NCBI GenBank assembly: GCA_963921795.1
Contig: OY997641.1
Location: forward strand, 73,363,272 to 73,427,271
Length of the DNA stretch: 64,000 nt
DNA from: Nannobrachium achirus
Lineage: Eukaryota; Chordata; Actinopteri; Myctophiformes; Myctophidae
Direction: 5' to 3'
The notes beneath the pieces were generated by a model, which did not search any database, had not been told where the DNA came from, and saw nothing but the letters and a program-made list of their open reading frames with translations. Below, piece after piece: positions 5,049 through 60,660 of this stretch. A program made the position numbers and the translations under genes. How positions within the stretch are numbered: position 1 is the stretch's first letter; each line of letters opens with the position of its first letter.

Positions 5049-5054
5049 GAAATG
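5049..5054 (+). other. Empty target site of the giant transposon (unit A)
   Basis: GAAATG in the uninterrupted context CACTCTGAAATGGCCACTC. In unit B the same hexamer is duplicated on both sides of the 19.4 kb element. Confidence 0.9.
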
Positions 5055-8408: not shown

Positions 8409-10306
8409 AGGGTTATACGGTTTCCATTTTTTCTTAACCTCGGTTTAGGCCCCCCCCAAAACCCCGGTACACGGTTTTACACGGTTTTGCTTTAACTGGT
8501 CTGAGGAGTGAGGACAGCTGTTAAATTAATCCAACCTGAGACTGCTATTACAGTCTTTCACCAACAGATGGCTCCCTTCTTTGCCCATTTCACACTATTA
8601 CAGATGAGTGCAAATCATTAATTATTCTTTAATGCAGAGTTGCTGACAAATTAAAACAGCCAGACAACATTTTGACAAAATTACCATTTAGACTGGCTGC
8701 TAGCTATTGCTAAAGGGTAAATTAAAGCAGTTTCCTTTCAGTGTGTTTAAAGAAAGAAGTGACCACGACCAGATCATTATAGGGAGAAACAAACTGCACT
8801 TTATTTTAACAGACGCTGGTCAGGAATCAGTGCTCATGCCTTAGTTGGCCACTTGGCCTATGACAGAAAATTGTAAACAAATATTTATATTGTCACATAA
8901 TGGTATGGTAGGCATGTTTTCCATTCTCCAATAAAATAACACAAAAAAGCTTCTTTAACAATCATTGTAACCCGTTTCTCTGTAAAATCTGACTGAAAAC
9001 AGTTAATAAAGAATTTATAAAACAAATTCACATATTTTCAGAAGGTGCCATTTATTTAGCCTAACAAAAGGCAGCTTCAAGTTTAGTGCAAAATTAACTT
9101 ACATCTTTGTAAACATTGCTGCTAGGCTCAGTAGGCTGTGGCCTATTATTTTCAAGTTATGTAAGTATAATTAGCCCAACAGGCTTTAAGTTTGACAATA
9201 ACAAAGGTGACTTCAGTGTTCAGTACAAATAAAATAATAAAACAAATTAAACCAAATAAAATGCCATCATGGCAAGTATCAGTGCAAGTAGCTGCAGCAG
9301 CACACTCATAAAACATAAATTAAACTAAATAAAATGGCATTATGGCAAGTCTGTGCCCTTTCTAATTAAATAAATGTTGTGGGTCGCTATATTCTTTAGC
9401 CATTATTTAAACACAATAGCCCAGTAAGCCCACTATCACTGTCACAGTGAATCTACTCAAGATTCTTAGCCAAAAACACAAGCATGTCCACTTTTTCTGG
9501 TTTAAGGAGACTTCGTGAGGCGCAAACTACATTACCAGCTGTGCTGAAGACGCGCTCAGAAGCCGTACTGGTGGCACAAACACACAGGTATTTCCTGGCA
9601 ACGATCGCCAATAATGGCAATCGATCTGCGTTGTTTTTCCACCAGACAAGGGGATCTTCATTCCCATCTAGGACGGGTTCTCTCAAGTAGGTAGCCAGCT
9701 CATCTTTTGCCTTTTGCTCTGGGGTTTCAGCTGGCCGGGCGGTTGCAAATGCAACACTTTTTTGGAGCATACTGGCCAGTGACATCTTCTTCTTTTTTTG
9801 TGGTGGCGCCGCAGCAGCGGCGCTCTCGCTCGCAGTTTCCTCCGTAGCCACGGGACCGTCGGGACGTACCCTCCCCGCCAATGCGACCATCTCGGCCTGT
9901 AGATCAGCTTTTATCTCATCCAAATCAACGGCACCGCCCTCGTCCACAAACTTATCCCGGTAGCGAGGGTCAAGCATGGTGCACTTGTGCAGCATCTTCT
10001 GAGCTGCGTCAGCTGAATAATAGTTATTCAGCTTGTTAACAATTCCCAACTTGATGTTCTGCGTTAGTGTGACATCATCTTCTTGGACACACAGCGTGTC
10101 ATCTCGGCACATCTTTAACAGCGGTAGGATACAGGAGCTTGTGACATACTGTTCTGCAGACAGCATGTCTGTGAACGCAGCAGCCGGTTTGAGAGCCTGG
10201 TTTATGGCTGTCAGAACATCTGTGTCACTCCAGGTGAATGTGACCCTGTTGGCACCTCTGTCCGCTGACAGTACTGCTCGAATGGCTGGTTCTTGTTCCA
10301 GGATAC
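8409..10306 (-). mobile_element. Truncated hAT (ZBED-type) element at the unit A/B junction
   Basis: Begins TAGGGTTATACGGTTTCC at 8409 and breaks inside the transposase gene at 10306, where unit B sequence resumes at TATGTCAGTTACACAC. It contains the 3' half of the transposase on the minus strand and a 3' untranslated region of about 1 kb. Both flanks are unit sequence, so the element lies at the duplication breakpoint. Confidence 0.65.
9453..10306 (-). pseudogene. hAT transposase, C-terminal part (5' truncated)
   Basis: The minus frame is open from the break at 10306 to a stop at 9453, about 284 residues. It starts mid-protein at RILEQEPAIRAVLSADR and continues TWSDTDVLTAINQALKPAAAF, CILPLLKMCRDDTLCVQEDD, and MLHKCTMLDPRYRDKF. 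A low-complexity Ala/Lys linker follows. It ends with the hAT dimerisation domain: PLVWWKNN, LPLLAIVARKYLCV, ATSTASERVFSTAGNV and LLKPEKVDMLVFL. These are hallmarks of ZBED/hAT transposases, which cut and paste DNA using an RNase H-like fold. The BED finger and the first catalytic part are missing, so it cannot be active. No internal frameshift was seen, so it is fairly young. Confidence 0.85.
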
Positions 10307-10456
10307 GGTATGTCAGTTACACACACAACACCACACTACACACTGCAGTGTCTGTTACACTTAAACGTACATGTCTCAGAATAGAAGCTTAATTTCAAAT
10401 ATAAAGTGCTTATTCCATGGCCATAGATGTTGCAATTCTCTTCGGGTGGGTACAAG

Positions 10457-11649: not shown

Positions 11650-11655
11650 GAAATG
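11650..11655 (+). other. Left target-site duplication GAAATG
   Basis: Hexamer before the left end of the giant element, repeated at 31028-31033. Confidence 0.9.
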
Positions 11656-12082
11656 TACGGAGCCCCGCAGTGGCCACCGACCTCCGCAAAAAAGCGCAGG
11701 CGTGGCCACGAGAAAGATCTCGATATAACGGGATCCGCACCCGTACCCACGAGATGCCACTCGTTATCACGACTTGACCAACTCGTGATCACGAGTAAGG
11801 AACTCGAGCCCACGAGATGAGTAATTTGATATTACGAGATAAGGAACTCGTGGGAATGAATTCCACATCTCGTAATTACGAGATAAGGAACTCGTGGGAA
11901 TGAATTCCACATCTCGTAATTACGAGTAGTTAATAAGACCCGCCAAATGCTGCAATCAGAAACAGCTGTGCATCTGCAATCATCACCAGCCGCTTGTATC
12001 CCTCGGTGAGGCTTCCAAAGGACAGAAGCAGACAAGACGAATCTCCTGTTAATCCTGTAAGTTATCTTTTTCTTGTTTGTGT

Positions 12083-13262
12083 TACAGTTTTTCATGATTG
12101 TTAACACACGTTTTTCACTACACTAACAGCTTTTTCAAAACTGCACACACAAAACTGAAAACCTCACACACAAAATGCTAAACCTCACACTCCCTTCCCA
12201 AGATGATCACTTTGCCATCAAATCACTTAACTGTGTTGACAAAATGGAACTTGTGTTTTCATTTCACCTGACACTCCCTTCCCAAGATGACTCTTTGCCA
12301 TAAAATCACTTAACTGTGTTCACAAAATGGAACTCATGTTTTATTTGGTACACACTGCCATATTTTCAAATGACACATACCTTTCATTCAGTACACACAA
12401 CTAAGATTTGCTGCACACTACCAAGCATCTACAGCACAATGAAGTGCAAAATTGAAAACACAATCATTGAATTGGAACACACCATATGAATGACATTGAC
12501 TCTGGAGAATGAGCTATTTATCCTTTTGTAAAATTTCTCAGTGTTGGCCTACTTTTTTATATAGTCAAACATAAAACAGCACACAAATATGCAACCAAAA
12601 AGTTTTATTTGGGTACATGATTTACAGTAGATTTAGGCACCATGCCTCCGGTCAGAGATGGGCACAAAATACAAAAAAGTATTTTGAAAAAAATCTAAAT
12701 ACTTGCTTAGTACTTGGTCTAATATTGACCAGGATAGTGTCACCAAGATACTATCCTGGTGACACTATCCTGGTATTTGTATCTTTGTATTTCAAATAAT
12801 TTTTTGTATTGTGTGCCCATATCTGCCTCTGGTTCCTGTCTCAATGTTCAGTTGTGCAACAACTGAACATTGTGTGTAGTGTTTAGACAACAAGGTGCTT
12901 GCGTAATTGACATCAGACTTGAATGTGTAGAGTTTTGAATAGTTGTGTGTTGTGTGTTGATACTTTGAGATTTTAAGTGAGAAGTGTGTGCAACAACTGA
13001 ACATTGTGTATAGTGTTTAGACAACAAGGTGATGTGTAATTGACATCCGTGTTTTATAGGTTGATGCTTTGAGATTTTACATGAGAAGTGTGTGCAACAA
13101 CATGACATCAGAGTGTAAAGAAGGAGAATCCGAGTCTAATGCATGAAAAGCGAGTGTGAAGTAGTGCCAAATCAGGTCAAGCTATAGGTACATGAAGTGA
13201 AGGTTGTGAAAATTGTGCCAAATTTAAAATTTTTGTGTGTTAACAATCATGAAAAACTGTAA
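12083..13262. mobile_element. Mariner/Tc1-type element inside left inverted repeat
   Basis: TA-CAGTTTTTCATGATTGTT at the left and AACAATCATGAAAAACTG-TA at the right are perfect inverted ends with a TA duplication. No transposase remains. The same insertion is at the mirrored place in the right arm, so it predates the last arm homogenisation. Confidence 0.68.
12656..12828. repeat. Nested hairpin element (also at 29939-30111)
   Basis: GAGATGGGCACAAAATAC and GTATTGTGTGCCCATATC are inverted. The centre has a second short palindrome around CCAGGATAGTGTCACC. No coding content. Confidence 0.55.
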
Positions 13263-13470
13263 TGTTATTCCAAGCGCTATATTACTTAGTAAAAATGTAA
13301 CCCTTACAACTCATATATTGTCATTATATTACTACTGACATTCCTAGTGGTGTGACACTAGAGGGCGATGTAAGCTAGGCTTCCGCTATGTACCCGATGA
13401 CGGTGAAATAAACCACCCACAGTGCATCTCGGAGAAACACTCTCCAGCATTCTTTAACTAATCTGTGGAA

Positions 13471-13479
13471 TATATAAAG
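13471..13479 (+). promoter_or_regulatory. Possible TATA box for inward transcription (left arm)
   Basis: TATATAAAG in a conserved, non-repetitive part of the arm, mirrored at 29276-29284 on the minus strand. Each copy would drive transcription toward the leader-exon cassettes and the gene beyond. Weak evidence: motif and symmetry only. Confidence 0.25.
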
Positions 13480-14454
13480 TAAATAAGACACAACAATAGA
13501 GGATCTATTATTGTTGCAGGCAGTATTTGATTAATAATGACTAAACAAACGTGCGCCTGACAGGACGCAGACCGATGCCGTATTAATCCAGCGTCCATGT
13601 TGTGATCTGCCCAAGCGGTCAGACCCTTTTAACTTTATGATCTTAAAGTTATCATCTTACATATTATACCTCAGTGGGTGTAATATATAAAACTTCTGAC
13701 CATTACCTCTATGGTTCATACGTTGAACTCTATTGTGACCGTGAAATGTCGCATATATTTTCTTAAATTGAGATGTACTTTTCAGAAGACATTTCTGTTT
13801 ACCTGCTATCCTTCACATTCAATGTGCAGATTATTTTTTGCTAAAGAATACCTAGAGGCACAATCTGTATTTCATCTATTACTTTATCAGATTAAATGAA
13901 GACCATTAATCTACCTTATAGTTACTCACAACTAAACCTTTATTGATGTGCTTTAAGTGATTTTCTAATTATTGATGTGAAAGTCAATTTATTAATTTGC
14001 AATGTAGGCATTTAGCATTTGAACAGTACACAGATCAGCAATCAAACTTTATATAGCAAAACAACTTTTATTCAGGTAACAACTCCACTTAAAGCCACAC
14101 TTATAGTTTAAAATGTATTATTAACATGAAATGCTGTATACTTTAGTGAGGCCATTTAGCACCTGCTATTGGCTATGGTGGAGTTAGATAAGTTTATAAA
14201 GGTTTCGTATGGTAAAGAGTATTTGGGGAGTCACATTTGTCATAGGATATAGGTGTTAGATGGATATCTTTTTCAGACCAAAAAAACCCCAAAAACATCA
14301 CTTGTAGCTTTCAGTCATGTCCCTGTGCTGGATAACAGGTAGTGGTTGTTTGCTCTGAGACAACAGGAGTAGTGCTTGTCTGAGCCTGGCGTACGAGGTA
14401 ACAGGTGAAGGCATCAATTCTAGCTCACACGTGTCTTTGTGTATTTGTTTGCAG

Positions 14455-14553
14455 TTGGCGGATTGCAGAAGCCTGGTTCCCGACCCCGCTACTGGACGTC
14501 GGTTTCTGGGTTGCAGACTGACAGATTGCGGGGCCAGGCCTTCAAGGTCACAG
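14455..14553 (+). other. Leader-exon-like cassette A (left arm)
   Basis: 99 nt bounded by an acceptor TATTTGTTTGCAG and a donor GTCACAG|GTGAAT. No conserved reading frame is evident, so it is probably a 5' untranslated exon or alternative leader of the transposase gene. Mirror copy at 28202-28300. Confidence 0.5.
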
Positions 14554-14860
14554 GTGAATATCTATGCATCACGCAGAACACACATTGCAGTCATCTGATT
14601 ACTACACAATCCTAGGGGAGGACTCAATGCCCACATTTTGAACTAACATGAATTGTTTGAATGTAAGATACTTTGATCTCACAAAACAGACTTTGTTTGC
14701 CAAGCACATCATCAGACAACGTAACTTTTTACAAAGAGGTGCCAAGCCCATACAGGGACGCTCCTGTTACCGCTAAAGTTCATCCTAAAGCTGAAATAAA
14801 TATTTGCCTCAGGCATCAAATCTAGCTCACATTTGGGTTTGTGTATGTATTTCTTTGCAG

Positions 14861-14987
14861 TTTGCGGTTCTTTTCTTCGGGACCTCAGGTGTTTTGGCTG
14901 TCCCAGCCTGTACCCGCCCTCGCTACTGGACGTCGGTTTCTGGGGTGCTGACTGACAGATTGCGGGGCCAGGCCTTCAAGGTCACAG
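14861..14987 (+). other. Leader-exon-like cassette B (left arm)
   Basis: 127 nt between acceptor TATTTCTTTGCAG and donor GTCACAG|GTGAAT, sharing its 3' half with cassette A. The cassettes are part of a direct repeat of about 400 bp (14430-15260). Confidence 0.5.
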
Positions 14988-15265
14988 GTGAATATCTATG
15001 CATCACGCAGAGCACACATTGCAGTCATCTGATTACTACACAATCCCAGGGGAGGACTCAATGCCCACATTTTGAACTAACACTAACATGAATTGTTTTA
15101 ATGTAAGATACTTTGATCTCGCAAAGCACAGACTTTGTTTTCCAAGCACTTCATCAGACAACGTAACTTTTTAAAAACAGGTGCCAAGCCCATATGGGGG
15201 CACTCCTGTTACCGCTAAAGTTTATCCTAAAGCTGAAATACATAATTTGCCACAGGCCTCAATTC

Positions 15266-16170
15266 TAAGCCACTCACAATAATAAAGGAAACTTGATTTC
15301 GGGCCATTATATCTCCCCTTTAATAATATCAATCAATAATGCGTTGATTCGAGACCTTTCAACAAGGGGCTGCATGATAATGCATCGGGCAATCATGGAA
15401 TGAGAAACCTAGGCAAACGTGTTGGGAGTGCCAGCCAAAAATGTGCCAAAATGGCTTGTAATGCAGTTTTGCTGGCATTCACAATTGTTGCTTCAAGCAT
15501 TGCAGATTGCACTCCCACACAGTAATAAGGACAAGAGAAAAACACATTGGCCATACACTCAAGGATAAGAAAAGCTAAACAAAAAAATAAACATTGGCCA
15601 TACACTGTCAGGGACCTCAGTAGTATGTGTAGGATATGCAGCCACAACAGCTTGGCACCTTCTCATCATGCTGGTCACTATCCTGGCCACATTCTGCTGT
15701 GGAATGGCATCCCATTCCTCAACAAGGATATGTGACAAGTCAGCCAACGTGGTTCTGTTGGTCACTCTAGCATGCCATGTACAGCTTGACCAAGCGGATC
15801 CTCCCAGCCTCAGTGTTTCCACCAGTTTTGCTGCTTGAAGAAACCACAAACCCAATAATTTGCAGAACCCATTCATGTGGGTGCTAGTCACACACCTGTG
15901 ACTTTGACATGCATGTGACTTTCTGCCAGCATTTGAAGTTCAAAACGTGAGTAAATGCCAGCAGAACAGCATTATTTACAGGCCATTTTGGCACATTTTT
16001 GGCTGGCACTCCCCACACGTTTGCTTATGTTTCTCATTCCACGATTGCCCGATGCATATCATGCAGCCCCTTGTTGGAATGGTCTCGAATCAACGCATTA
16101 TTGATTGATATTATTGAAGGGGAGATATAATGGCCCGAAGTCAAGTTTCCTTTATTTTTGTGAGCAGTTA
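15266..16170. mobile_element. Tc1/mariner-type foldback with transposase remnant
   Basis: TA-flanked long inverted ends: AATAAAGGAAACTTGATTTC left and the complement right, continuing through CGGGCCATTATATCTCCCCT for over 150 bp. On the minus strand (about 15600-15800) a decayed Tc1 transposase C-terminus reads LVEEWDAIPQQNVARIVTSM then RRCQAVV. It sits just upstream of the transposase acceptor of the giant element, in its presumed intron; similar uninterrupted sequence is at 21260-21300. Confidence 0.75.
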
Positions 16171-16243
16171 AGCTCACACTTGTGTTTGTGCCTTTGTTTC
16201 CAGTTGCGGTTTTTCATCTGTGACAAGGAGCAGATCAGTGATC

Positions 16244-17973
16244 ATGGATAGAGACACCTTAATCAAGATTTGTTTCAATTTGGGCATGATTTATGAAGAC
16301 ATTCTGTCAACACTTGCTTGGCATGGGATTATTGTTAGTCCAAGGCAATTAACAAGGATATTGAGAGCATGTGGGTTATACCGTCGCCGATATTCTGACC
16401 TGGATGCTGCTATCGACTTTGTTTTACAACAATTGGAAGGCCCTGGACAACTCCATGGATACCGGTGGATGTACACCAAGTTACTGGAGCACGGTATCCG
16501 GATCCGGAAGGAAGACACGAGAATCCTTCTTTCTCTGCTAGACCCAGTAAACACTGAAGCTCGAAGAAGCCGACGTCTGACACGGAGGCGTTATTTTTCT
16601 AAAGGACCGAATTACATATGGCACGTCGATTCATACGACAAACTCAAGCCCTACGGAATATGCATTAATGGATGCATAGACGGGTATTCCCGTAGGATCA
16701 TATGGCTAAGAGCTGCCTTTACCAGCAGTGACCCAAAGGTTATTGGAGGCTACTTCGTTGAATCAATAGAGGAAACCGGAGGCTACCCAAGACTTCTACG
16801 CACAGACATGGGTACAGAGAATGTTGTGATAAGAGACATCCAAAAGTATTTGCGTCGAAATGATGAAGATGACAGGGCAGGAGAAAGGAGTTACATAACA
16901 GGAAAAAGCACAGCAAACCAGAGAATAGAGAGTTGGTGGGGACAGATGAGAAAGGAAGGGGTAGAATATTGGATTCAGCTTCTGGGAGAACTTAAGGATG
17001 AAGGGATCTTCAACGGTGACCTCTTGGATAAAGCACTTGTGCAGTTTTGCTTCATGGTAATAATTCAGGTAGGTTTCTAAACGGTAGACTGTACCAGCCT
17101 GGATCCACAAACATAATCATCTTACAATGCAACAGAGTCAGAATCTTGTTAAGAACAGGTCTATTATATTGTGTTTCAACAGCCGGCAGTGTAATTTACG
17201 CATGCGTGGTGGATGTAGGCCTACTGCTGCTTGAGGCTATGAAAGATTGCACCAGGCAGTACACATAAGACGATAGGCGAGGTCCAGGAAAGGGTTATTT
17301 TTACCGTTATGTATTCCTTAACTATTGTAAGTTAAAACACCACTAACAACAGTGTTCTAATTTCATCCAAATGCCCATGGAACTGGCAGCTCGCACACCC
17401 AGGGTTAGGGGGTCAGGTGTCAATATCTATTTGTATGTTGGCTACCTTCAATTTAAGAATATTATATCTACAGTATTACAGGATATTCAATTATAGTGAA
17501 ATGGTTGTGACTGATTGATAGGCCAATGAGATAGATACGTAATCGCTGATGTATTTGCATGATCTCTCTCTCTCTCCCCTCCTCTCCCCTCCCCCTCCCC
17601 CCTCCCTCCCCTCCCTCCCCTCCCTCTGTAGAAGGAGTTGGATGAAATCAAGGATGTTTGGAACGCACATCGCATCCGGCCCACCAAGAACGCCAATATC
17701 CCCGCTGGAATACCAAATGTCATGTACTTCGCACCGCACTTGTGGGGCACAGAGGACCATCTTGTTCCCTCCAGTGTTGACCTTGACACTTGTAAAGAGA
17801 GTTGCAAGTTCTTAACTTCAGTTCCATGTGATGAGGACGTATTTGATTTGTGCTCAATTGTAATGGAAGAATCAGGCTTAGAGTTCCCTGTGAACTGTTC
17901 ACATGCACTTGACTTGTATGTATCATTGAGGGATATTATCCGCCCACAAATATTACAGCAGGATATTGCATGA
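16244..17973 (+). CDS. IS3-like integrase-fold transposase of the giant element (two coding exons)
   Basis: Exon 1 is 16244-17068 and exon 2 is 17632-17973, joined at CAG|GTAGGT ... CTCTGTAG|AAGGAG in phase 0, giving about 388 residues. ATG 16244 is chosen over the upstream GTG at 16220 because the conserved start MDRDTLIKICFNLGM begins there, 41 nt after a leader acceptor TTTCCAG. An N-terminal helix-turn-helix-like region is followed by an IS3 OrfB-like segment GYRWMYTKLLEHGI and the integrase core. The catalytic triad is D129 (IWHVDSYD), D188 (RTDMGTEN) and E229 (ANQRIESWW). Exon 2 continues KELDEIKDVWNAHRIRPTKN and GTEDHLVPS, a C-terminal extension present in related fish proteins. It should cut and join the element's ends in the nucleus. 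No stop or frameshift is seen, so it may be functional. Intron 1 has a long CT tract before its acceptor. Confidence 0.85.
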
Positions 17974-18168
17974 ATGTCACTGTTTTCAGCTTAAACGTAG
18001 ACACACACGGGCGACTGCAAAATCCCTCCCACAAATGGAACAGTGACCTCTTTTCTGGTCCGTCATAACGTTATACTGCAGGCCTGTCCATAGCAGTCAA
18101 TGCAATTCAACTGCTGGTTAGCTTACTTTCAAAGTAATCCTGCATGAACTAAAGACTATTTTGATCCA

Positions 18169-18174
18169 AATAAA
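18169..18174 (+). terminator. Poly(A) signal of the transposase gene
   Basis: AATAAA about 195 nt after the stop codon, the first on this strand. Confidence 0.45.
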
Positions 18175-18293
18175 AATATGTTTTCAAAAGCATGGATTGT
18201 CTTTGTCAACACCTATTTTTTTTTTTCTAAAAAGAAAATGTGCTTCAAATTTAATTTGACACTTGAATGAGTTACCCATAATGTTAAAGGAGT

Positions 18294-18445
18294 AGTACAC
18301 CCCCAAATTGACTTTTTTTCTATTGATTACTCATGCCTTGGACACCTGAGTTCAATAGTATTTTTTTATTTTATTTATTGCATTCCTAAGACAAAAAAAT
18401 GGTTTTAGTAAACTTACCCCCATTCATTTTGATAGGGGACCCGCG
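18294..18445. mobile_element. One arm of a TTAA palindromic element
   Basis: Starts TTAAAGGAGTAGTACACCCC and matches one arm of the complete palindrome at 22923-23239 through CTTACCCCCATTCAT. The second arm is missing. Confidence 0.55.
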
Positions 18446-21264
18446 TCAACGCGGTCAACAAAAGACACTGGGGTCTACATGATGGGCTGAGGCGAAATTG
18501 GTACAGTTAGCTGGGGCTTTAAGGCCACTGTGGCCCTTGGGGCATGCAATATCTTTGAGGGACACAAGGCCAAACTGGGGGGCAACGCTAGCCTCTTAAG
18601 TATTGAGTGTTAATATTTTCAGGGATTAAAGTTCTCAGTAAAAATCCCCTATTGGGACATGCTCTGAAAATTATTTTCAGTCTTGGCATTTTGTCTTGCT
18701 TTAACCCCTGTACTTTACAAACTATCTTTTCCCCCATTCAAATATCAATATGCTCACTATTTCAATCTTTTATACATGATAAGCTGATGTGTTTCCATTT
18801 TCACTTTATCTTATGCCTGTATTGCACATTTGAGACACTCTGGACAAAATTTAGTGTCATGTGTCATCTAAATATGAATGAAAGTATTTGCTATCCTTAT
18901 ATTACCATCATGTAATGAGTCTATATCTGTGGTGTCTACATGCAATTCTTGGGAGAGCGTTCTTGAATTGAGCTGTAGGTGGCGCTCTATTAATTCATGG
19001 GAGATGTATATCTTTGTGCCATATTTAAATTGGACATTCTTTAACGTTAAACAACAATAACAAACGGACAGCTTTAAATAATAACATTTATAGGCCAATT
19101 ATGTCTTCTGCACACACATTTAAATTTCATCAAAGCAAAGTGCAACTAATCTCTCCTTTTATTGACACTGGTCCGCAGATGGTTGGTCAAGGTTTACGAA
19201 ACCTTAACTGCGGTGACCCCAAAAATAATCTTATTTGAAGTGGGGACACCACTTAAATTTTTGACTTGATTCCACAGATTGATAATTTGGCGTAGTGATC
19301 TTTTAGATCAGCTAACATCTCATTGTTTGAATTTTTATTACTTAATGACATTTGTGCATAAAAAAGGTCTTGAAAGTATCACAGACCACTTCATAAATTT
19401 ACAGACACCGTTTACCCTTAAACTTGAAGTTGGATTATTTACTGTTCAGGTAAAGTAATTGACATTTAGCTAATCATCAGTGGATCCCACTTAGGGTCCC
19501 AACCCCCAGTTTTTGAACAATTGATCTAGGTTCTCACGTTTCTTAAGCATGGAAATGTTCCAAATGTAATCTTTCCCACAACCACATTCAAGTGCGGGAG
19601 AAAACCATTATTACAGCACACCATGAATATAAAATATACCTCAATGCCTAAATCCTGTGTGCAGCTGACACCTGTAACCAAATGTATATGTAGAAAATTA
19701 GCTAGTTAGACCAACACTGAAGTTCAAATGAACTATGAAGATACCATTTCATTCCATTTTTGATGTATGTGTGTATGTATTACATCTGTAGAATTGCTTT
19801 TGACTTAACAGTATGTCTACACTGCAAAGAACAAGTCCCACAAATCATGGGACCTGTTCAAATGGTCATATAGTGGATGCTATTTCTGTGATACCATCAC
19901 ATCACAGGCCAAACGAGATTTTTATAGGACCTCTAGTCATAATCTATAGGCACATTTTAAACATTCCCCACTGAATCTGCTAATATAATCAAATACTTCA
20001 ATGAGACAATCATGACAAACTGACAAACGATAGCAGACATTCTTTAATGGAATACAAAAGAATAATCAAGCACTCCATAACACATTAATATAAAGTATTG
20101 TACAGAAACCATATGCTTTCAACTTGGTTTACAATGCAATCTTAAAACATTTTTCCAAAAATAAGTCAAATAAATACGGTATCAATACTTCATGAGAAAA
20201 CAAATGTATCATGTCAAAGTATCCTACTGTGTCAAAACAATACAAAGGCAAGAGTAAGGCAAGAAAAGAGAAGAAAAAAAAAGCGAGAGATACAGCAAAA
20301 AAGTACAATTACCCAGTTTTGACTGGATGACTAAAACAAAAATCCCAACATTAATTAACAGTACTATACTTAATCTGGCACATATAGGTTTTAGTGCAAG
20401 AAGCACAAGAATATTCAAACCTTTATTTCCACACAAACATGTTAATTAGTAAAACACATTAAATTCATACATGCAAATTGAACCTGTGTTATAGAAGCAT
20501 TTTTCTACAGGGGGAAAAAAATGCCATCATACACTGATGATAGTGCTGTAAATAAAGTTTCTGGACCCGCTAAAGAAATCTATGAACCTTCTCAATCTAC
20601 AACACATTTTTATCCAAAATGTAGCTTGGGTTATCTAAGCAAAAGGTGTGTTGGCCTGAAAACCTGAAGACCCTTTGCCAAGCTGACTACATTCAGACTC
20701 TCTCAGAGTTCAACACTTTAAGCTACATTATATAAAAAAAACAAAATCTAATAAAAAGAGGGGAAATCAGTCTTACGTTAACTAATGTATTTCAGTTATA
20801 TTCTCAGTCGTAGATGGGCAACTTTGATTCTTGAGAGGGCCACTATATTTCAACACTTCCTCAGAGAGCCACATAGTATATACATGCAATAATACTCGAT
20901 CACAAGCTCAAAGTGTTGCATTGCGACAGCAACACCTTTGTGCTTGTAGATCTGTCATTCATAACATTTCTGTAATCAAGTATTCTTTTAATCCAATGTG
21001 TAATGCATTTCTATTTTCTTATATTATGAAGTTAAATACAAATACACTGGACAAAGCATACCGACTAGACAAAGTCATTAATGAAAATTCTACTATTTTG
21101 CAAATAAGGCCATTCATGTTTGCATGTTTTGAATTGGAACAACGGAAATATCAGTATTTTGAAACTAACCTGCAGAAGGCCACGTTAGGTTTAGGTGGGG
21201 GCCACATGAGTATGGCCTAGGCCTAAAATGACAACCTCACAATTGCTCATTAGCAGGACTTTGC
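18446..21264. other. Unresolved interior of the giant element
   Basis: AT-rich sequence with no gene recognised. Frames up to 129 codons (20831-21220) have no family signature. The segment at 20810-21220 starts GATGGGCAACTTTGATTC and could be an old hAT insertion; this is a guess. Confidence 0.3.
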
Positions 21265-21460
21265 AGCTCACACTTGAGTTTGTGCATTTGTTTGCAGTTG
21301 CTTTTTTTCATCTGTGATAAGGAGCAGATCAGTGATCATGGATAGACACCTTAATCAATTTTCTAAAGGACCGAATTATATTATGGCACGTCGATTCACA
21401 TGACAAACTCAAGCCCTACGGAATATGCATTAATGGATGCATACATGCATACCATAGGCA
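21265..21460 (+). pseudogene. Internally deleted second copy of the transposase 5' end
   Basis: It repeats the leader acceptor (TTTGTTTGCAG|TTG), the leader CATCTGTGATAAGGAGCAGA, ATG GATAGACACCTTAATCAA, then jumps to TTTCTAAAGGACCGAATTAT, GGCACGTCGATTC and GGAATATGCATTAATGGATG. Relative to the intact gene, about 330 bp (about 16266-16592) are gone. No downstream catalytic part follows. Confidence 0.8.
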
Positions 21461-21861
21461 TATGATAGATTCTGTTTCTACAACTTGGATTAAAAAATCA
21501 CGCGTATGTGTTTGTGGAATACAACATGGAGAATGTTGCTATAACATATGCCATCATTTATCTCTTAGAGACCAATGATGAACATCCGATGGAATTGTAT
21601 CAGTCTTCTGATATTTCAGTCAGGCATAGGCTGTGTGAGGCTGTAATCTATGTTCATGTAAATTATGGTGACAAAGCAATGATATGAGAAGGTATTAAAT
21701 ATATATATCTGGATGTGTAAACTACACGAAAAATAACGCTACTGATGTGATGATTGAAGCCATGTTTTGAGGTAACCAAAGTCATTGTTTTATATTGCTA
21801 CTTTTACGTGGGAAGTGAATCGTATTAACTGCTTTCTATACCTTAACAATGTGAATGAAAA

Positions 21862-21890
21862 AATAAACTGATAGAAATGACTGTTTTATT
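21862..21890. terminator. Back-to-back poly(A) signals on both strands
   Basis: AATAAA at 21862-21867 on + and at 21885-21890 on -. The minus one is the first clear signal downstream of the HECT stop (about 2.2 kb away), the plus one follows the deleted transposase copy. This suggests a shared convergent terminator. Confidence 0.4.
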
Positions 21891-22004
21891 GAAATGTTGA
21901 CCAAGTTCACAACAAGTCTGCAGTGCAATGACACAAAACATCAAATAACAAACAGTCCAACAAGAGAACACGAAATTGAACAGTGGACATAAGGCTACAT
22001 TGCC

Positions 22005-22648
22005 TTAAAGGGGTATTTCACTTTCAAAACAACTTTTGGTTATTTTATCATCTAATCAGTCTTTTATGAACACTCTGAACAGTTTTTAATTTGCTTCATT
22101 CAATATTTACATATTTGATGTAAATGTTACCAGCTCCTCCAGGCCCAGGGCCTCTCCCCACACACACACATTGTAACTTCAAACTTCATTTTAACCATGA
22201 CAGATTCATTAAAAACACCCATTATTTTTTCTGGTGACTCATACCCTCCTAATACGTGAGCAGACCGTGTTTTTTCAATAACTTTTTTCATTTATTTTTA
22301 ATAATTATTTGTTTGTATTTAATTTTTTCCATTTTCCCAAATAATTATTAAAAATAAATGAAAAAAGTTATTGAAAAAACACAGTCTGCTCACGTATTAG
22401 GAGGGTAATATGAGTCACCAGAAAAAATAATGGGTGTATTTAATGAATCTATCATGGTTAAAATGGAGTTTGAAGTTACAATGTGTGTGTGTGGGGAGAG
22501 GCCTCCAGGCCTGGAGGAGCTGGTAACATTTACATCAAATATGTAAATATTGAATGAAGCAAATTAAAAACTGTTCAGAGTGTTCATAAAAGACTGATTA
22601 GATGATAAAATAACCAAAAGTTGTTTTGAAAGTGAAATACCCCTTTAA
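22005..22648. mobile_element. Palindromic TTAA element, 644 bp, in array unit 1
   Basis: TTAAAGGGGTATTTCACTTT ... AAAGTGAAATACCCCTTTAA. The arms (about 310 bp each) are nearly perfect complements around a centre near 22325. The target TTAA is duplicated; empty sites are at 23513-23516 and 23790-23793. Confidence 0.82.
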
Positions 22649-22922
22649 GAAGGCCAAAAGATATTTGTGCAATTCTCCTAACGTTTAGGACAAATTATTA
22701 GAAGCCCTGTAGGGAAAAAGAAGTAGTTGGCAGAACATAACGTGTCACAATAAATTTAAAAGGCACAAAAAAAAAGAATGTACAAAACAGGGAAATGCTA
22801 CACATTGTCAGTGCATATAGTGCCTTCAGTAGTGTGCTTAAGGCACTAATCTTTTGTTTTTCTTAACAAACAGTCCAACAAGAGAACAAGAAATTGAACA
22901 GTGGACATAAGGCTACATTGCC

Positions 22923-23239
22923 TTAAAGGAGTAGTTCACCCCCCAAATGATATTTTTTCTATTGATTAGTCATGCCATGGAGACTAGAGTTCAATAATAT
23001 TTTTAGTTTTGTCGCATTCCTAAGACAAAAATGTGATAATAAATTTACCCCCATTCATTCCGGTAGGTGACACGTTTTGAAACGTGTCACCTACCGGAAT
23101 CAATGGGGGTAAATTTACTGTTATCACATTTTTGTCTTAGGAATGCGACAAAAACCTAAAAATATTATTGAACTCTAGTCTCCATGGCATGACTAATCAA
23201 TAGAAAAAATATCATTTTGGGGGTGAACTACTCCTTTAA
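22923..23239. mobile_element. Palindromic TTAA element, 317 bp, in array unit 2
   Basis: TTAAAGGAGTAGTTCACCCC ... GGGGTGAACTACTCCTTTAA. Arms of about 150 bp with a centre near GTTTTGAAAC. It is unrelated in sequence to the palindrome in unit 1 except at the termini, yet occupies the same TTAA of the repeat unit. Confidence 0.82.
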
Positions 23240-24132
23240 GAAGGCCAAAAGATATTTGTGCAATTCTCCTAACGTTTAGGACAAATTATTAGAAGCCCTG
23301 TAGGGAACAATAAGTAGTTGGCAGAACATAACGTGTCACAATAAATTTAAAAGGCACAAAAAAAAGAATGTACAAAACAGGGAAATGCTACACATTGTCA
23401 GTGCATATAGTGCCTTCAGTAGTGTGCTTAAGGCACTAATCTTTTGTTTTTCTTAACAAACAGTCCAACAAGAGAACAAGAAATTGAACAGTGGACATAA
23501 GGCTACATTGCCTTAAGAAGGCCAAAAGATATTTGTGCAATTCTCCTAACGTTTAGGACAAATTATTAGAAGCCCTGTAGGGAAAAAGAAGTAGTTGGCA
23601 GAACATAACGTGTCACAATAAATTTAAAAGGCACAAAAAAAAGAATGTACAAAACAGGGAAATGCTACACATTGTCAGTGCATATAGTGCCTTCAGTAGT
23701 GTGCTTAAGGCACTAATCTTTTGTTTTTCTTAACAAACAGTCCAACAAGAGAACAAGAAATTGAACAGTGGACATAAGGCTACATTGCCTTAAGAAGGCC
23801 AAAAGATATTTGTGCAATTCTCCTAACGTTTAGGACAAATTATTAGAAGCCCTGTAGGGAAAAAGAAGTAGTTGGCAGAACATAACGTGTCACAATAAAT
23901 TTAAAAGGCACAAAAAAAAAGAATGTACAAAACAGGGAAATGCTACACATTGTCAGTGCATATAGTACCTTCAGTAGTGTGCTTAAGGCACTAATCCTTT
24001 GTTTTTCTTAATCCTTTCACTTGAGGAAGAATTTGCATTGCTTATGTGCATGAGGTAGGTAACAAGGCTAAGACGAAACACTAACCACCAACACTAAAAA
24101 CAGCAGCAATGCAATCCTTTTGCCTAAGGCAA

Positions 24133-26745
24133 TTAGACAATATCCATAACCCATATAGAGGGATTGAGGACACTATTGAAATCAAATCGGAGATCTGGAT
24201 AACTGCTGTACCTGATGGGTATCTTTAAAATGCAACCACATGTGTGTGACTGCGGTCTTCGTTCGAATTCAGATGTTTCGATGAACTCGACAGTGATAGG
24301 TTTATCCATTAAGTTAGCCCCAGTGCAAAACCTCAGGAAGTGCTGTAGAGTGTTGACATCCACTTCTCCAAGATATCTCTTCAGGTAGCGCGAAACTGTA
24401 TTCTGTTGTGGATTCATTAGATATGGGAATTGAAGGAGTGCCTTCACACCCCTGGCTGTGGGAGTTTTCTCCTTTATGACACGATGCAGGTCATCTGGTG
24501 GTAACACACTTGCTAAGCGTGCCACAATGGGACGCCAACAATCGATTACATAATTGGGTGCCTGTATAAGAGCCTTGTGCCCCAGCGAAGACAGCAGTGG
24601 GATCAGATTCTCCTCAGTGGGAATGTGATGGCACTCATGTGATTCGAGGGCATCAATCAATGTTTCACCATCAACCGAGCTGAAGTCATCCAGAGCCTTT
24701 TGGATGACCTCTCTCTCATTAACAGACACGTACTTCAAGAAGGTGTCCTTTAAGCCACTGGTGATTGTGCCATAAAGCGCTTCTTCCAGGAACGGAGTTG
24801 CAAGTTTCACCGGGAAATAGCCGGCAACCCTCCACCCTACTACGAGTATTCTGCCAATAGCCTGCCACTCTTCAGATTGATACTCGTGCCTAATAAATGG
24901 AACTTTAACATCACATCCAAGGGTGCATCTATCATAAAAATCTGTCCAGAACTCGGTGAAGCAGTCTCTGGTAACACCGCCTCCCTCTCCTTGTTCTAGG
25001 GAACCATTGGGCAGACGCATTTTTATGACACATACTTCAGCATCTAGAATATCAGGATCTTTGAATTCCTTTATCATATCGTGTAAACAATGTCCCCTCC
25101 GTATGATTAATGTGAAAACATCACTCACAGGATGATGTATGATGTCTGAATGTTCATTCAGAGTAGGCTCATCTGGAGCTGGACTCACGGGTGCTAAGTC
25201 AGGCAGCGCAGCAGGATGGTCTAACACGGCTTCTTGTGACGGCTCATTCAGAGTAGGCTCATTTAAAACTGTTCTCACAGATGGCGTTTCAAGCAGAGTC
25301 GCTGGCTGGGGTAGGTCATTCAGAGTAGATTGATTTAGAACTGGTCTCACAGCAGGTGGCAAGTCAAGCGAAGCAGCAGGCTGGGCTAACACGGCTTGTG
25401 GTGACTGTTCATTCAGGGTAGGCCGATTTAAAAATGGTCTCGCAGGTGTTAAGTCATGCAGCGCTGCAGGTCGGGGTAACGCGGCCTCTTCCGTCAGGTC
25501 ATACAGAGGAACAGGCTGATTAGGAACCGGTCTGACAGGTGGTGAGTGAGGCAGAGTGGATGGATGGGGTAGCACGGCTTCTGGCGTCTCTGGGGTTATC
25601 TGGGGTTGTTGGACAGCCAGATGCCAAGCCATATTTACCATGTCTGATGGTACCCATTGCAATGTGTCAGCTTGCTGAAATGACCTATTTGTCGTCCCAG
25701 GGCCAAATTGTATTTCTGTGTCATTAGGGTCTACGTCCCATGACAACTGACTCAAAGAAACACGCTCACTTCTAGTCAGATCGACTATCCGGGTGGAAGT
25801 CATAGGTATGTCCCCATCTGAAGAGATCGAATCTATGTGTGAATCGCTGATGGGCTCTCCTTCTGGGTCCGACAAACCCTCCAGTTCCTCCAATGAAGGC
25901 ACAACTAGCTGTTCATCTGAGGAAACCCCAGGGCTCCTTTTTTTTGTACACAAGTACAGTCTGAGTATTTTGGCCTGACTTTCCTCGTACAGATTCTCCA
26001 AATTGCGACTTTTGTTAGTGGTATCTACAATATTGCACTCGATTTCTGTACTATAGTAAGACAGCTTGTGTTTTTTACTGGATATGCCGCTGGGGAAAAA
26101 GAGAGATTCAGCATAGTCTTTAATATCTTCTATAGTTTTATCTTTTTCTATGCTTACATTTCTCGTGCCACCGCCTTTGGCTTCTTTGACCTGTTTATAT
26201 TTCTGGTCCTTTTCATCGAAGTCCATCCAACCAAGCTGAACCTTTCTTGTTTTTTTTATTGCATTTCTATTGCCCAAACCTAATCTGCCAGAACCTAATG
26301 CAACTCTTGATTTGGATTTTTTGACAGTTCCAGATTCCACTGGAGACAACAGTTTGTTTTTAAGCCTTTCAACGATGGCGTCTCGCCTGGTCTTGGCATC
26401 AGTTGATCCCTTTAACTGCCTGCAGTATGCGACTGTAGAAATCCGATCACCAGCTTTCGGGAGGTACTTGGAAAGATCGCTGTCGGTCATCACTGGTATC
26501 ACAGAAGCATCAATCTTTGGGTGTCGTTGGGGGGAGGGGGGAAAACACACAGAAAAAAAGGATATCATGATTAGATTAAAACACATTCATGACAGCCTTT
26601 TCGTGTACCTATACACACCCTTTTCCAATAAAAGTGAATTATTGTGACATCAATAAATATGACTTACATTTTGATTGTCCATCTCTTCAATCAGGGCCTC
26701 ATCGATATTCCTGCCCCTCAGAAATAATTTCAGGTCGGCATCCAT
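24133..26745 (-). CDS. HECT-type E3 ubiquitin ligase with SAM-like N-terminus (two coding exons)
   Basis: Exon 1 is 26745-26668 (MDADLKLFLRGRNIDEALIE...), donor AAAAT|GTAAGT; exon 2 is 26514-24133 after acceptor CACCCAAAG|ATT; phase 0; 819 residues. The ATG follows an acceptor-like TTTCCACAG by 7 nt. A SAM-like region spans about 1-70, with IDASVIPVMTDSDLSKYLPK after the junction. A basic/conserved region (70-215) includes VQLGWMDFDEKD and KGGGTRNVS. Acidic then Pro-rich repeats fill 220-485. The HECT domain covers about 490-819, from IIRRGHCLHDM through EGGGVTRDCFTEFW to the catalytic loop SHTCGC (active Cys about 785) and the C-terminus NPSIWVMDIV. It resembles G2E3-like ligases, which move ubiquitin from E2 to substrate through that Cys. 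Open throughout. Its role in the transposon is unknown; host-factor turnover is only a guess. Confidence 0.85.
25140..25600 (-). repeat. Pro-rich tandem repeat inside the HECT coding exon
   Basis: About five degenerate units of roughly 32-36 codons with the pattern RPVLNxPTLNE, then QAVLxxPAAL. All keep the frame. Probably a disordered spacer between the N-terminal region and the HECT domain. Confidence 0.7.
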
Positions 26746-27135
26746 CTTAATGCTGTGGAAAGAAACATTAGAATTTAGAAAGTCATTTTTAAACTGGTTG
26801 AACTTGAAGCACAACTCTACCCTACATTACTTCTAGGCTGTGTTTCTTACTTATTTTGATCCTAAACGACTGATGCCTGTGGTAAATATGTCCTTCAGCT
26901 ATAGGATAAACTTTAGCGGTAACAGGAGCGTTCCCGTATGGGCTTGGCACCTGTTTTTAAAAAGTTACGTTGTCTGATGATGTGCTTGGCAAACAAAGTC
27001 TGTTTTGTGAGATCAAAGTCTCTTACATTCAAACAATTCATGTTAGTTAAAAATGTGGGCATTGAGTCCTTCCCTGGCATTGTGTAGTAATCAGATGACT
27101 GCAATGTGTGCTCTGCGTGATGCATAGATATTCAC

Positions 27136-27479
27136 CTGTGACCTTGAAGGCCTGGCCCCGCAATCTGTCAGTCAGCACCCCAGAAACCGACGTCCAGTAG
27201 CGAGGGCGGGAAAGAGGGTGTCAGACCGCCATTCCGAAACACCGCCATTCCGAACATTGACTAGGGTTAGGGTTAGGGTTAGGGGTAGGGGTAGGGGTAG
27301 GGTTAGGGTTAGTTAGGGTTAGGGTTAGGGTTAGGGTAAGGGTTAGGGTTAGGGTTAGGGGTAGGGTTAGGGTTAGAAGTCAATGTTCGGAATGGCGGTG
27401 TTTCGGAATGGCGGGGTGTAACCGGGAAAGAGGCTGGGACAGCCAAAACACCTGAGGTCCCGAAGAAAAGAACCGCAAA
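27136..27479 (-). other. Leader-exon-like cassette C' (right arm only), split by a MITE
   Basis: Third copy of the cassette, closest to the HECT gene; acceptor and donor are intact but a 206-bp MITE lies in its middle. Confidence 0.5.
27217..27424. mobile_element. MITE with TTAGGG-type core inside the right arm
   Basis: Inverted ends CCGCCATTCCGAAACACCGC ... GCGGTGTTTCGGAATGGCGG enclose about 110 bp of TTAGGG/GGTTAGGGG repeats (27263-27376). GGGAAAGAGG is present on both sides (27208-27217, 27424-27433), probably the target duplication. The other four cassette copies lack it. Confidence 0.75.
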
Positions 27480-27767
27480 CTGCAAAGAAATACACAAAAC
27501 CAAATGTGAGCTAGAGGCAAATATGTATTTCAGCTTTAGGATAAACTTTTGCGGTAACAGGAGCGTCCCCGTATGGGCTTGTCACCTGTTTTTAAAAAGT
27601 TACGTTGTCTGATGATGTGCTTGGCAAACAAAGTCTGTTTTGTGAGATCAAAGTCTCTTACATTCAAACAATTCATGTTAGTTAAAAATGTGGGCATTGA
27701 GTCCTCCCCCCTCCTGTAGTAATCAGATGACTGCAATGTGTGTTCTGCGTGATGCATAGATATTCAC

Positions 27768-27894
27768 CTGTGACCTTGAAGGCCTGGCCCCGCAATCTGT
27801 CAGTCAGCACCCAAGAAACCGACGTCCAGTAGCGAGGGCGGGTACAGGCTGGGACAGCCAAAACACCTGAGGTCCCGAAGAAAAGAACCGCAAA
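27768..27894 (-). other. Leader-exon-like cassette B' (right arm)
   Basis: Mirror of 14861-14987, 127 nt, splice-like sites intact. Confidence 0.5.
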
Positions 27895-28201
27895 CTGCAA
27901 AGAAATACATACACAAACCCAAATGTGAGCTAGATTTGATGCCTGAGGCAAATATTTATTTCAGCTTTAGGATGAACTTTAGCGGTAACAGGAGCGTCCC
28001 TGTATGGGCTTGGCACCTCTTTGTAAAAAGTTACGTTGTCTGATGATGTGCTTGGCAAACAAAGTCTGTTTTGTGAGATCAAAGTATCTTACATTCAAAC
28101 AATTCATGTTAGTTCAAAATGTGGGCATTGAGTCCTCCCCTAGGATTGTGTAGTAATCAGATGACTGCAATGTGTGTTCTGCGTGATGCATAGATATTCA
28201 C

Positions 28202-28300
28202 CTGTGACCTTGAAGGCCTGGCCCCGCAATCTGTCAGTCTGCAACCCAGAAACCGACGTCCAGTAGCGGGGTCGGGAACCAGGCTTCTGCAATCCGCCAA
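28202..28300 (-). other. Leader-exon-like cassette A' (right arm)
   Basis: Mirror of 14455-14553 with both splice-like sites intact; faces the HECT gene. Confidence 0.5.
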
Positions 28301-29275
28301 CTGCAAACAAATACACAAAGACACGTGTGAGCTAGAATTGATGCCTTCACCTGTTACCTCGTACGCCAGGCTCAGACAAGCACTACTCCTGTTGTCTCAG
28401 AGCAAACAACCACTACCTGTTATCCAGCACAGGGACATGACTGAAAGCTACAAGTGATGTTTTTGGGGTTTTTTTGGTCTGAAAAAGATATCCATCTAAC
28501 ACCTATATCCTATGACAAATGTGACTCCCCAAATACTCTTTACCATACGAAACCTTTATAAACTTATCTAACTCCACCATAGCCAATAGCAGGTGCTAAA
28601 TGGCCTCACTAAAGTATACAGCATTTCATGTTAATAATACATTTTAAACTATAAGTGTGGCTTTAAGTGGAGTTGTTACCTGAATAAAAGTTGTTTTGCT
28701 ATATAAAGTTTGATTGCTGATCTGTGTACTGTTCAAATGCTAAATGCCTACATTGCAAATTAATAAATTGACTTTCACATCAATAATTAGAAAATCACTT
28801 AAAGCACATCAATAAAGGTTTAGTTGTGAGTAACTATAAGGTAGATTAATGGTCTTCATTTAATCTGATAAAGTAATAGATGAAATACAGATTGTGCCTC
28901 TAGGTATTCTTTAGCAAAAAATAATCTGCACATTGAATGTGAAGGATAGCAGGTAAACAGAAATGTCTTCTGAAAAGTACATCTCAATTTAAGAAAATAT
29001 ATGCGACATTTCACGGTCACAATAGAGTTCAACGTATGAACCATAGAGGTAATGGTCAGAAGTTTTATATATTACACCCACTGAGGTGTAATATGTAAGA
29101 TGATAACTTTAAGATCATAAAGTTAAAAGGGTCTGACCGCTTGGGCAGATCACAACATGGACGCTGGATTAATACGGCATCGGTCTGCGTCCTGTCAGGC
29201 GCACGTTTGTTTAGTCATTATTAATCAAATACTGCCTGCAACAATAATAGATCCTCTATTGTTGTGTCTTATTTA

Positions 29276-29284
29276 CTTTATATA
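29276..29284 (-). promoter_or_regulatory. Possible TATA box for inward transcription (right arm)
   Basis: Mirror of 13471-13479; would serve the HECT gene. Confidence 0.25.
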
Positions 29285-29493
29285 TTCCACAGATTAGTTA
29301 AAGAATGCTGGAGAGTGTTTCTCCGAGATGCACTGTGGGTGGTTTATTTCACCGTCATCGGGTACATAGCGGAAGCCTAGCTTACATCGCCCTCTAGTGT
29401 CACACCACTAGGAATGTCAGTAGTAATATAATGACAATATATGAGTTGTAAGGGTTACATTTTTACTAAGTAATATAGCGCTTGGAATAACAT

Positions 29494-30600
29494 TACAGTT
29501 TTTCATGATTGTTAACACACAAAAATTTTAAATTTGGCACAATTTTCACAACCTTCACTTCATGTACCTATAGCTTGACCTGATTTGGCACTACTTCACA
29601 CTCGCTTTTCATGCATTAGACTCGGATTCTCCTTCTTTACACTCTGATGTCATGTTGTTGCACACACTTCTCATGTAAAATCTCAAAGCATCAACCTATA
29701 AAACACGGATGTCAATTACACATCACCTTGTTGTCTAAACACTATACACAATGTTCAGTTGTTGCACACACTTCTCACTTAAAATCTCAAAGTATCAACA
29801 CACAACACACAACTATTCAAAACTCTACACATTCAAGTCTGATGTCAATTACGCAAGCACCTTGTTGTCTAAACACTACACACAATGTTCAGTTGTTGCA
29901 CAACTGAACATTGAGACAGGAACCAGAGGCAGATATGGGCACACAATACAAAAAATTATTTGAAATACAAAGATACAAATACCAGGATAGTGTCACCAGG
30001 ATAGTATCTTGGTGACACTATCCTGGTCAATATTAGACCAAGTACTAAGCAAGTATTTAGATTTTTTTCAAAATACTTTTTTGTATTTTGTGCCCATCTC
30101 TGACCGGAGGCATGGTGCCTAAATCTACTGTAAATCATGTACCCAAATAAAACTTTTTGGTTGCATATTTGTGTGCTGTTTTATGTTTGACTATATAAAA
30201 AAGTAGGCCAACACTGAGAAATTTTACAAAAGGATAAATAGCTCATTCTCCAGAGTCAATGTCATTCATATGGTGTGTTCCAATTCAATGATTGTGTTTT
30301 CAATTTTGCACTTCATTGTGCTGTAGATGCTTGGTAGTGTGCAGCAAATCTTAGTTGTGTGTACTGAATGAAAGGTATGTGTCATTTGAAAATATGGCAG
30401 TGTGTACCAAATAAAACATGAGTTCCATTTTGTGAACACAGTTAAGTGATTTTATGGCAAAGAGTCATCTTGGGAAGGGAGTGTCAGGTGAAATGAAAAC
30501 ACAAGTTCCATTTTGTCAACACAGTTAAGTGATTTGATGGCAAAGTGATCATCTTGGGAAGGGAGTGTGAGGTTTAGCAAAACAATCATGAAAAACTGTA
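29494..30600. mobile_element. Mariner/Tc1-type element inside right inverted repeat
   Basis: Mirror copy of 12083-13262 with the same TA duplication and ends. It lacks about 85 bp near the outer end, where ATCATGATTG-type sequence jumps directly to GCTAAACCTCACAC on the complementary strand. Confidence 0.68.
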
Positions 30601-31027
30601 ACACAAACAAGAAAAAGATAACTTACAGGATTAACAGGAGATTGGTCTTGTCTGCTTCTGTCCTTTGGAAGCCTCACCGAGGGATACAAGCGGCTGGTGA
30701 TGATTGCAGATGCACAGCTGTTTCTGATTGCAGCATTTGGCGGGTCTTATTAACTACTCGTAATTACGAGATGTGGAATTCATTCCCACGAGTTCCTTAT
30801 CTCGTAATTACGAGATGTGGAATTCATTCCCACGAGTTCCTTATCTCGTAATATCAAATTACTCATCTCGTGGGCTCGAGTTCCTTACTCGTGATCACGA
30901 GTTGGTCAAGTCGTAATAACGAGTGGCATCTCGTGGGTACGGGTGCGGATCCCGTTATATCGAGATCTTTCTCGTGGCCACGCCTGCGCTTTTTTGCGGA
31001 GGTCGGTGGCCACTGCGGGGCTCCGTA

Positions 31028-31033
31028 GAAATG
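31028..31033 (+). other. Right target-site duplication GAAATG
   Basis: Matches 11650-11655; sequence then continues GGCCACTCTTTATTG as in units A and C. Confidence 0.9.
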
Positions 31034-35960: not shown

Positions 35961-36055
35961 AACACACAAGGCCTTTATAAATAAATATAAGACAATGTTG
36001 CTCTCTACTAACTGTGAGAGATGGCCAACCCACTTTTTCATATAAATATGTTCTC

Positions 36056-60654: not shown

Positions 60655-60660
60655 GAAATG
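60655..60660 (+). other. Empty target site of the giant transposon (unit C)
   Basis: GAAATG in CACTCTGAAATGGCCACTC, uninterrupted. Confidence 0.9.

What the first reader, a model, noticed from the sequence alone, without database searches (positions are those of the whole stretch)
11656..31027. A 19.4 kb IS3-like eukaryotic transposon with multi-kilobase inverted repeats and a HECT ubiquitin ligase gene
Seen: identical outer ends, 6-bp duplication GAAATG, two empty sites in paralogous units (5049-5054, 60655-60660), and a centre with exactly two spliced, convergent, open genes. Known: D,D,E integrase folds move DNA; HECT proteins are E3 ligases. Inferred: the ligase travels as part of the element rather than being a captured bystander, because it lies symmetrically to the transposase and shares the same kind of arm-derived leader. 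A transposon that ships its own ubiquitin ligase would be a new kind of host-manipulating system.
Basis: partly seen in the sequence, partly recalled or inferred. Interest (0 to 1): 0.92.

Follow-up and report, generated by a model that had tools for sequence, protein, structure and literature searches.

The report
Jumping gene carrying a ubiquitin ligase
A 19-kb fish-type DNA transposon of the known IS3EU kind carries, besides the enzyme that moves it, its own conserved ubiquitin-tagging enzyme, and further copies elsewhere in the genome carry the same gene.

Summary
Window 11656-31027 is a 19,372-bp transposon with long inverted arms, a 6-bp target duplication (GAAATG), two empty paralogous sites, and two convergent spliced open genes: a DD40E transposase (388 aa) and a HECT ubiquitin ligase (819 aa). 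Ends (TACGG..CCGTA), duplication length and transposase type fit the published IS3EU superfamily. The HECT gene is not a bystander. A second copy (23,802 bp, duplication ATTTCC) has both genes intact. A divergent third (23,039 bp, GCTTTT) keeps the plan, and against the first only coding exons still align (HECT-domain dN/dS 0.12-0.17). Four more end-bracketed elements hold HECT remnants. Of 13 HECT loci of this kind found in the genome, 7 lie between such ends (6 of these with exact 6-bp duplications) and 2 more beside a transposase. Relatives occur in other fish, frogs and a sea star; locus tags are adjacent in two fish. The predicted HECT domain matches solved HECT ligases and keeps the cysteine. 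The arms of the two close copies look homogenised within each copy. No paper in the open-licence library holds both 'IS3EU' and 'HECT'. The ligase's target is unknown. Verdict: new variant of a known kind.

The parts
11650..11655 (.). target-site duplication GAAATG, left copy
11656..15251 (+). left arm of the long terminal inverted repeat (starts TACGGAGCCCCG; holds tandem blocks)
16244..17068 (+). transposase exon 1 with the D,D,E triad (D129, D188, E229; DD40E); PF24764 3.9e-23
17632..17973 (+). transposase exon 2 (to the stop codon)
   Evidence: homologues
21265..21443 (+). partial duplicate of pieces of transposase exon 1, a remnant inside the element
24133..26514 (-). HECT ligase exon 2: beta-grasp-like part, proline-rich linker, HECT domain with HTC motif
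26668..26745 (-). HECT ligase exon 1 (26 aa)
   Evidence: homologues
27516..31027 (-). right arm of the long terminal inverted repeat (ends CGGGGCTCCGTA)
31028..31033 (.). target-site duplication GAAATG, right copy
5049..5054 (.). empty target site GAAATG in a paralogous unit
60655..60660 (.). empty target site GAAATG in a second paralogous unit

Best explanation
This is an autonomous IS3EU-type DNA transposon whose cargo is a dedicated HECT-type E3 ubiquitin ligase. Shown by sequence: 6-bp duplications, empty sites, shared TACGG ends, several independent insertions with the HECT gene or its remnant inside, purifying selection on both genes between two subfamilies, and a predicted HECT fold with the active-site cysteine. 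Inferred: the transposase pairs the ends and inserts the element with a 6-bp stagger. Inferred: the ligase takes ubiquitin from a host E2 onto its C-lobe cysteine and passes it to a protein chosen by its N-terminal region, most likely a host factor that restrains the element (silencing or repair), less likely the transposase itself. Inferred: the long inverted arms are kept alike within a copy by gene conversion or hairpin copying.
Against: No activity, transcript or substrate was tested. The window's HECT match is below Pfam's cut-off (22.1 against 23.9 bits). Four of 13 HECT loci were not tied to ends or transposase, and one of the 6 strongest of 15 transposase loci has no HECT match within 20 kb. 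One of the 7 bracketed elements (C2:14.96) lacks an exact duplication. Between the first and third element dS is larger for the HECT gene (1.1-2.2) than for the transposase (0.5-0.6), which hints that the genes do not always travel together over long times; trees of the two proteins differ in detail, though distances correlate (r 0.80 for 7 pairs, 35 of 5040 permutations reach it; r 0.79 for 6 pairs, 20 of 720). The two near-identical copies differ by 7 replacement and 4 silent codons in HECT, too few to prove constraint. No Repbase IS3EU protein was at hand for a direct comparison.
Confidence: 0.78

Rival explanations
1. The HECT gene is a host gene captured by chance in one element and carried as a passenger without a role in the element's life.
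For: HECT matches are numerous in this genome (141 matches to PF00632), and transposons do capture host exons (general knowledge).
Against: The gene stands in the same convergent arrangement in elements whose HECT proteins are only about 57% identical, under purifying selection; its remnants lie in elements of further subfamilies; and it neighbours the transposase in other fish.
Confidence: 0.05
2. The HECT protein is an element-encoded regulator of the transposase itself: it ubiquitinates transposase to limit copy number, so the two convergent genes form a self-limiting pair.
For: The two genes are paired in opposite orientation in the window, C9 and C23 elements. The window's subfamily has few copies: 2 full copies found.
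Against: No interaction evidence. Low copy number has many other causes.
Confidence: 0.2
3. The HECT protein has lost ligase activity and serves as a DNA- or chromatin-binding helper through its N-terminal region.
For: Pfam's HECT model matches only the C-lobe. The N-terminal part has a fairly confident beta-grasp-like segment (about residues 107-216 of the frame) and is as constrained as the HECT domain (dN/dS 0.16 by one method, the other method failed).
Against: The predicted HECT fold is complete with both lobes, the TC of the active-site motif is in 32 of 37 rows with gaps in the rest, and the HECT domain is under purifying selection.
Confidence: 0.1
4. The element is a remnant of a self-synthesising, virus-like element such as a Polinton rather than a plain DNA transposon.
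For: Large size and long inverted repeats (general knowledge of Polintons); 6-bp duplications are also given for Polinton in PMC10045372.
Against: Of the 13 frames of 100 aa or more in the element only the transposase and HECT frames have a credible Pfam domain; TACGG ends; short end-only derivatives with 6-bp duplications. One scan of viral contigs for the HECT protein found no relative; the transposase was not scanned there.
Confidence: 0.03

Closest known systems
[quoted passage not shown] PMC10045372, passages and one section seen)
   Same: TA..TA ends, usually 6-bp duplications, IS3/IS481-like DDE transposase without an HHCC zinc finger
   Different: The paper's text holds no HECT or ubiquitin; arms here are about 3.5 kb
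TET/JBP-bearing IS3EU families of fungi (PMC12730594, passages seen)
   Same: TAYGG..CCRTA ends, 6-bp duplications, transposase with an accessory enzyme gene (alpha-kinase) in opposite orientation
   Different: Accessory genes are a dioxygenase and an alpha-kinase in fungi, no HECT or ubiquitin in its text; here a HECT gene in animals
Ginger1, Mutator and Helitron elements with OTU or Ulp1 protease domains (PMC2836005, passages seen)
   Same: Transposons encoding enzymes of the ubiquitin/SUMO pathway
   Different: Those remove ubiquitin or SUMO; this one has the fold that attaches ubiquitin, as a separate gene
HECT E3 ligases such as UBR5, HUWE1, NEDD4, E6AP
   Different: About 14% sequence identity, own N-terminal region with a beta-grasp-like segment, encoded by a transposon

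Membership tests
IS3EU superfamily | TA..TA ends (TAYGG..CCRTA in the fungal families) | tested here: met
   TACGGAGCCCC..GGGGCTCCGTA in the window copy, the C9 copy and the C23 element; definition from PMC10045372 and PMC12730594
IS3EU superfamily | 6-bp target-site duplication | tested here: met
   GAAATG, ATTTCC, GCTTTT, GCCGAG, CATTGC, ATTAGG: exact in 6 of 7 large elements (not C2:14.96); exact in 6 of 7 short paired-end derivatives fetched
IS3EU superfamily | IS3/IS481-like DDE transposase core; first D 100-300 residues from the N-terminus; no HHCC zinc finger | tested here: met
   PF24764 integrase core 3.9e-23, PF00665 weak, no zinc-finger family listed; D129, D188, E229 kept in 119, 119 and 120 of 120 homologues; feature from PMC10045372 section 3.3
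IS3EU superfamily | groups with Repbase IS3EU transposases in a tree | not testable with these tools
   no Repbase protein sequence was available
HECT E3 ubiquitin ligases | bilobal HECT fold | tested here: met
HECT E3 ubiquitin ligases | catalytic cysteine in the C-lobe (HTC motif) | tested here: met
   TC in 32 of 37 rows, gap in 5; that this cysteine is the catalytic one is by analogy, motif recalled from general knowledge
HECT E3 ubiquitin ligases | score above Pfam PF00632 cut-off | tested here: inconclusive
   window 22.1 bits against 23.9; 3 of 10 relatives scanned are above it
HECT E3 ubiquitin ligases | transfers ubiquitin in vitro | not testable with these tools
   needs the bench
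Polinton/Maverick | DNA polymerase, protease and capsid genes | tested here: not met
   13 frames of 100 aa or more in the element; Pfam scan of all 13 gives integrase core and HECT only, apart from one sub-threshold match at E 0.036; gene list of the family recalled from general knowledge

The most novel reading that the evidence does not exclude
A widespread animal lineage of IS3EU transposons has carried its own E3 ubiquitin ligase since before fish, frogs and echinoderms split, or has spread it between them, and uses it to destroy or rewire a host silencing or repair factor; its inverted arms are rewritten from one another in each copy, so the arms act as a self-repairing end and promoter module.
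Probability: 0.35. Interest if true: 0.85.

Novelty: new variant of a known kind. Interest (0 to 1): 0.62.

Why it matters
Transposon-encoded enzymes that edit host control (dioxygenases, proteases) are informative: they point to the host pathway that matters. A conserved HECT ligase paired with a transposase offers a direct handle. Find its substrate and one may learn which vertebrate protein limits DNA transposition. It also suggests that some 'uncharacterised' HECT genes in fish annotation are transposon genes. The matched arms give a natural case of concerted evolution inside one element.

Tried and rejected
The full-length HECT model from 11 sequences was poor (pLDDT 44); its Foldseek search gave no match at E 0.001 or better (ubiquitin-like folds are among the weak rows), so the beta-grasp-like segment stays a lead. 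Sequence searches of the PDB found no HECT relative for the protein or its alignment; the fold comparison did. A relative of the HECT alignment in viral contigs: none in one scan with two peptide patterns. Divergence of the HECT gene between the two close copies was first suggested by the 96% piece; the codon alignment showed that most of it came from the copy number of an 86-aa proline-rich unit (1 against 3). Congruence of transposase and HECT trees: distances correlate, but the pairs from Paramisgurnus and Astyanax are tied only by a shared contig length and Oryzias melastigma by tags 8 apart, so this is weak. A search for TA ends with a 6-bp duplication around the C8:69.9 and C14:57.17 elements found none. 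Literature: nine searches touch the question. None holds both 'IS3EU' and 'HECT'; two others returned nothing; the rest were seen as listings, capped, and show no title about a HECT gene in a DNA transposon. Passages of three papers were read (PMC10045372, PMC12730594, PMC2836005). bioRxiv and Repbase are not held.

Full report
What is there. The element spans window 11656-31027 (19,372 bp), flanked by GAAATG on both sides. It begins TACGGAGCCCCG and ends CGGGGCTCCGTA. Two arms in inverted orientation, about 3.5 kb each with tandem blocks, make up over a third of it. The joined flanks align through two empty paralogous sites in the window, so the insertion is real.

Other copies. A search of the 1.66-Gb genome with the first 275 bp found one further copy: C9:30152247-30176048, 23,802 bp, duplication ATTTCC. 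Its transposase coding sequence is identical to the window's (825 of 825 and 342 of 342 bases). Its HECT protein is open (991 aa) with three copies instead of one of an 86-aa proline-rich unit. A divergent element at C23:5420457-5443495 (23,039 bp, duplication GCTTTT, ends TACGGAGCCCCC) has the same plan. Between it and the window element only exons align (a transposase remnant aside). dN/dS over the HECT domain is 0.12-0.17, over the linker 0.48-0.67, over transposase exon 1 0.14-0.16; over the N-terminal part it is 0.16 by one method, the other failed. dS is high, so the ratios are rough.

How regular the pairing is. A genome search with the HECT protein gave 30 matches, which I cluster into 13 loci. 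Seven lie between inverted TACGG ends: the window, C9, C23, C2:14.96, C4:68.90, C8:65.44 and C13:60.56 Mb. Exact 6-bp duplications flank 6 of these 7; C2:14.96 has none. In the last four the HECT matches are pieces, most with stops. Two more loci (C8:69.9 and C14:57.17 Mb, themselves about 99% alike) lie beside a transposase. Four (C416, C2:36.47, C19:56.04, C16:30.5) were not tied to either. Of 15 transposase loci (my clustering of 25 matches) 6 lie within 20 kb of a HECT locus; of the 6 strongest, 5 do and C8:68.26 does not. Short paired-end derivatives without genes exist; 6 of 7 fetched have exact 6-bp duplications. The genome tool calls its counts lower bounds.

Other species. The HECT alignment found 68 proteins, scoring only the 7992 candidates that share most words: many fish, and Bombina, Xenopus and the sea star Patiria. 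In Sarotherodon galilaeus (ACER0C_022284/022285) and Boleophthalmus (NL108_007791/007790) the HECT and transposase locus tags are neighbours; both proteins are also listed with a contig of 6,730 bp. In Oryzias melastigma they are 8 tags apart, in Dissostichus mawsoni 260. Paramisgurnus and Astyanax share only a contig length, which is weak. The tool gives no genomic context, so these are inferences from names and contig lengths.

Arms. In the stretch before the tandem blocks, the two arms of the C9 copy agree at 2395 of 2395 positions and those of the window copy at 2734 of 2738, besides two length changes. Across the four arms 6 sites set the two copies apart in both arms, none sets left from right, and 4 lie in one arm only; 3 of 5 length changes are shared by both arms of a copy, including one of 445 columns. 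The numbers are small but all in one direction: the arms evolve in concert within a copy. In the C23 element the arms have diverged (83 of 3405 positions, 16 gap runs).

Reading. The superfamily is known: IS3EU has TA..TA ends and usually 6-bp duplications (PMC10045372, passages and section 3.3 read). Fungal IS3EU elements have TAYGG..CCRTA ends and carry TET/JBP and alpha-kinase genes, the latter opposite to the transposase (PMC12730594, passages). Ginger1, Mutator and Helitron elements carry OTU or Ulp1 domains, and the authors suggested that the ubiquitin pathway takes part in transposition (PMC2836005, passages). A HECT ligase would add the attaching side of that pathway. What it attaches ubiquitin to is not known; a host silencing or repair protein is my first guess, the transposase my second.

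Limits. The larger dS of the HECT gene than of the transposase between the two subfamilies is unexplained and may mean module exchange. The literature search covered open-licence PMC papers only; none holds both 'IS3EU' and 'HECT'.

Noticed in passing
window 21265-21443: A second, partial copy of pieces of transposase exon 1 (96 and 85 bp, 92 and 95% identical) lies inside the element; it is also in the C9 copy, and the C23 element has an inverted transposase fragment of its own.
   Followed up: partly
window 22004-24011: Nested near-perfect inverted repeats and 277-nt tandem units in the centre of the element, with stretches starting TTAAAGG; that they are MITEs is a guess.
   Followed up: no
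L053-L058 (G000 C14:57.16-57.19 Mb and C8:69.90-69.93 Mb): An about 99% identical stretch of some 26 kb on two chromosomes with a transposase nearest to a zebrafish protein (79-80% over most of it, 61% in the last part) and a HECT gene on each side of it in opposite orientations.
   Followed up: partly
G000 C5:66.56-67.24 Mb: A dense array of HECT-domain pieces (dozens of matches), apparently a host gene expansion; none of it matched the transposon HECT protein.
   Followed up: no
L067-L073 (G000, seven stretches): Short derivatives of 329-686 bp whose two ends differ: one end resembles the window subfamily (CCCCGCAGTGG) and the other the C23 subfamily (CCCCCTAGTGG).
   Followed up: partly
window 9456-10316 (-): A hAT transposase C-terminal piece (PF05699 7.7e-22).
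   Followed up: partly
window 36046-37356 (+): An open frame with C2H2 zinc fingers.
   Followed up: partly
P0141 (Bombina bombina): A HECT protein of this family predicted as fused to a run of C2H2 zinc fingers (1060 aa); could be a gene-model error or a real fusion.
   Followed up: no
HECT gene, first against third element: dS of the HECT gene (1.1-2.2) is about two to four times that of the transposase (0.5-0.6) on the same elements, hinting at module exchange.
   Followed up: no
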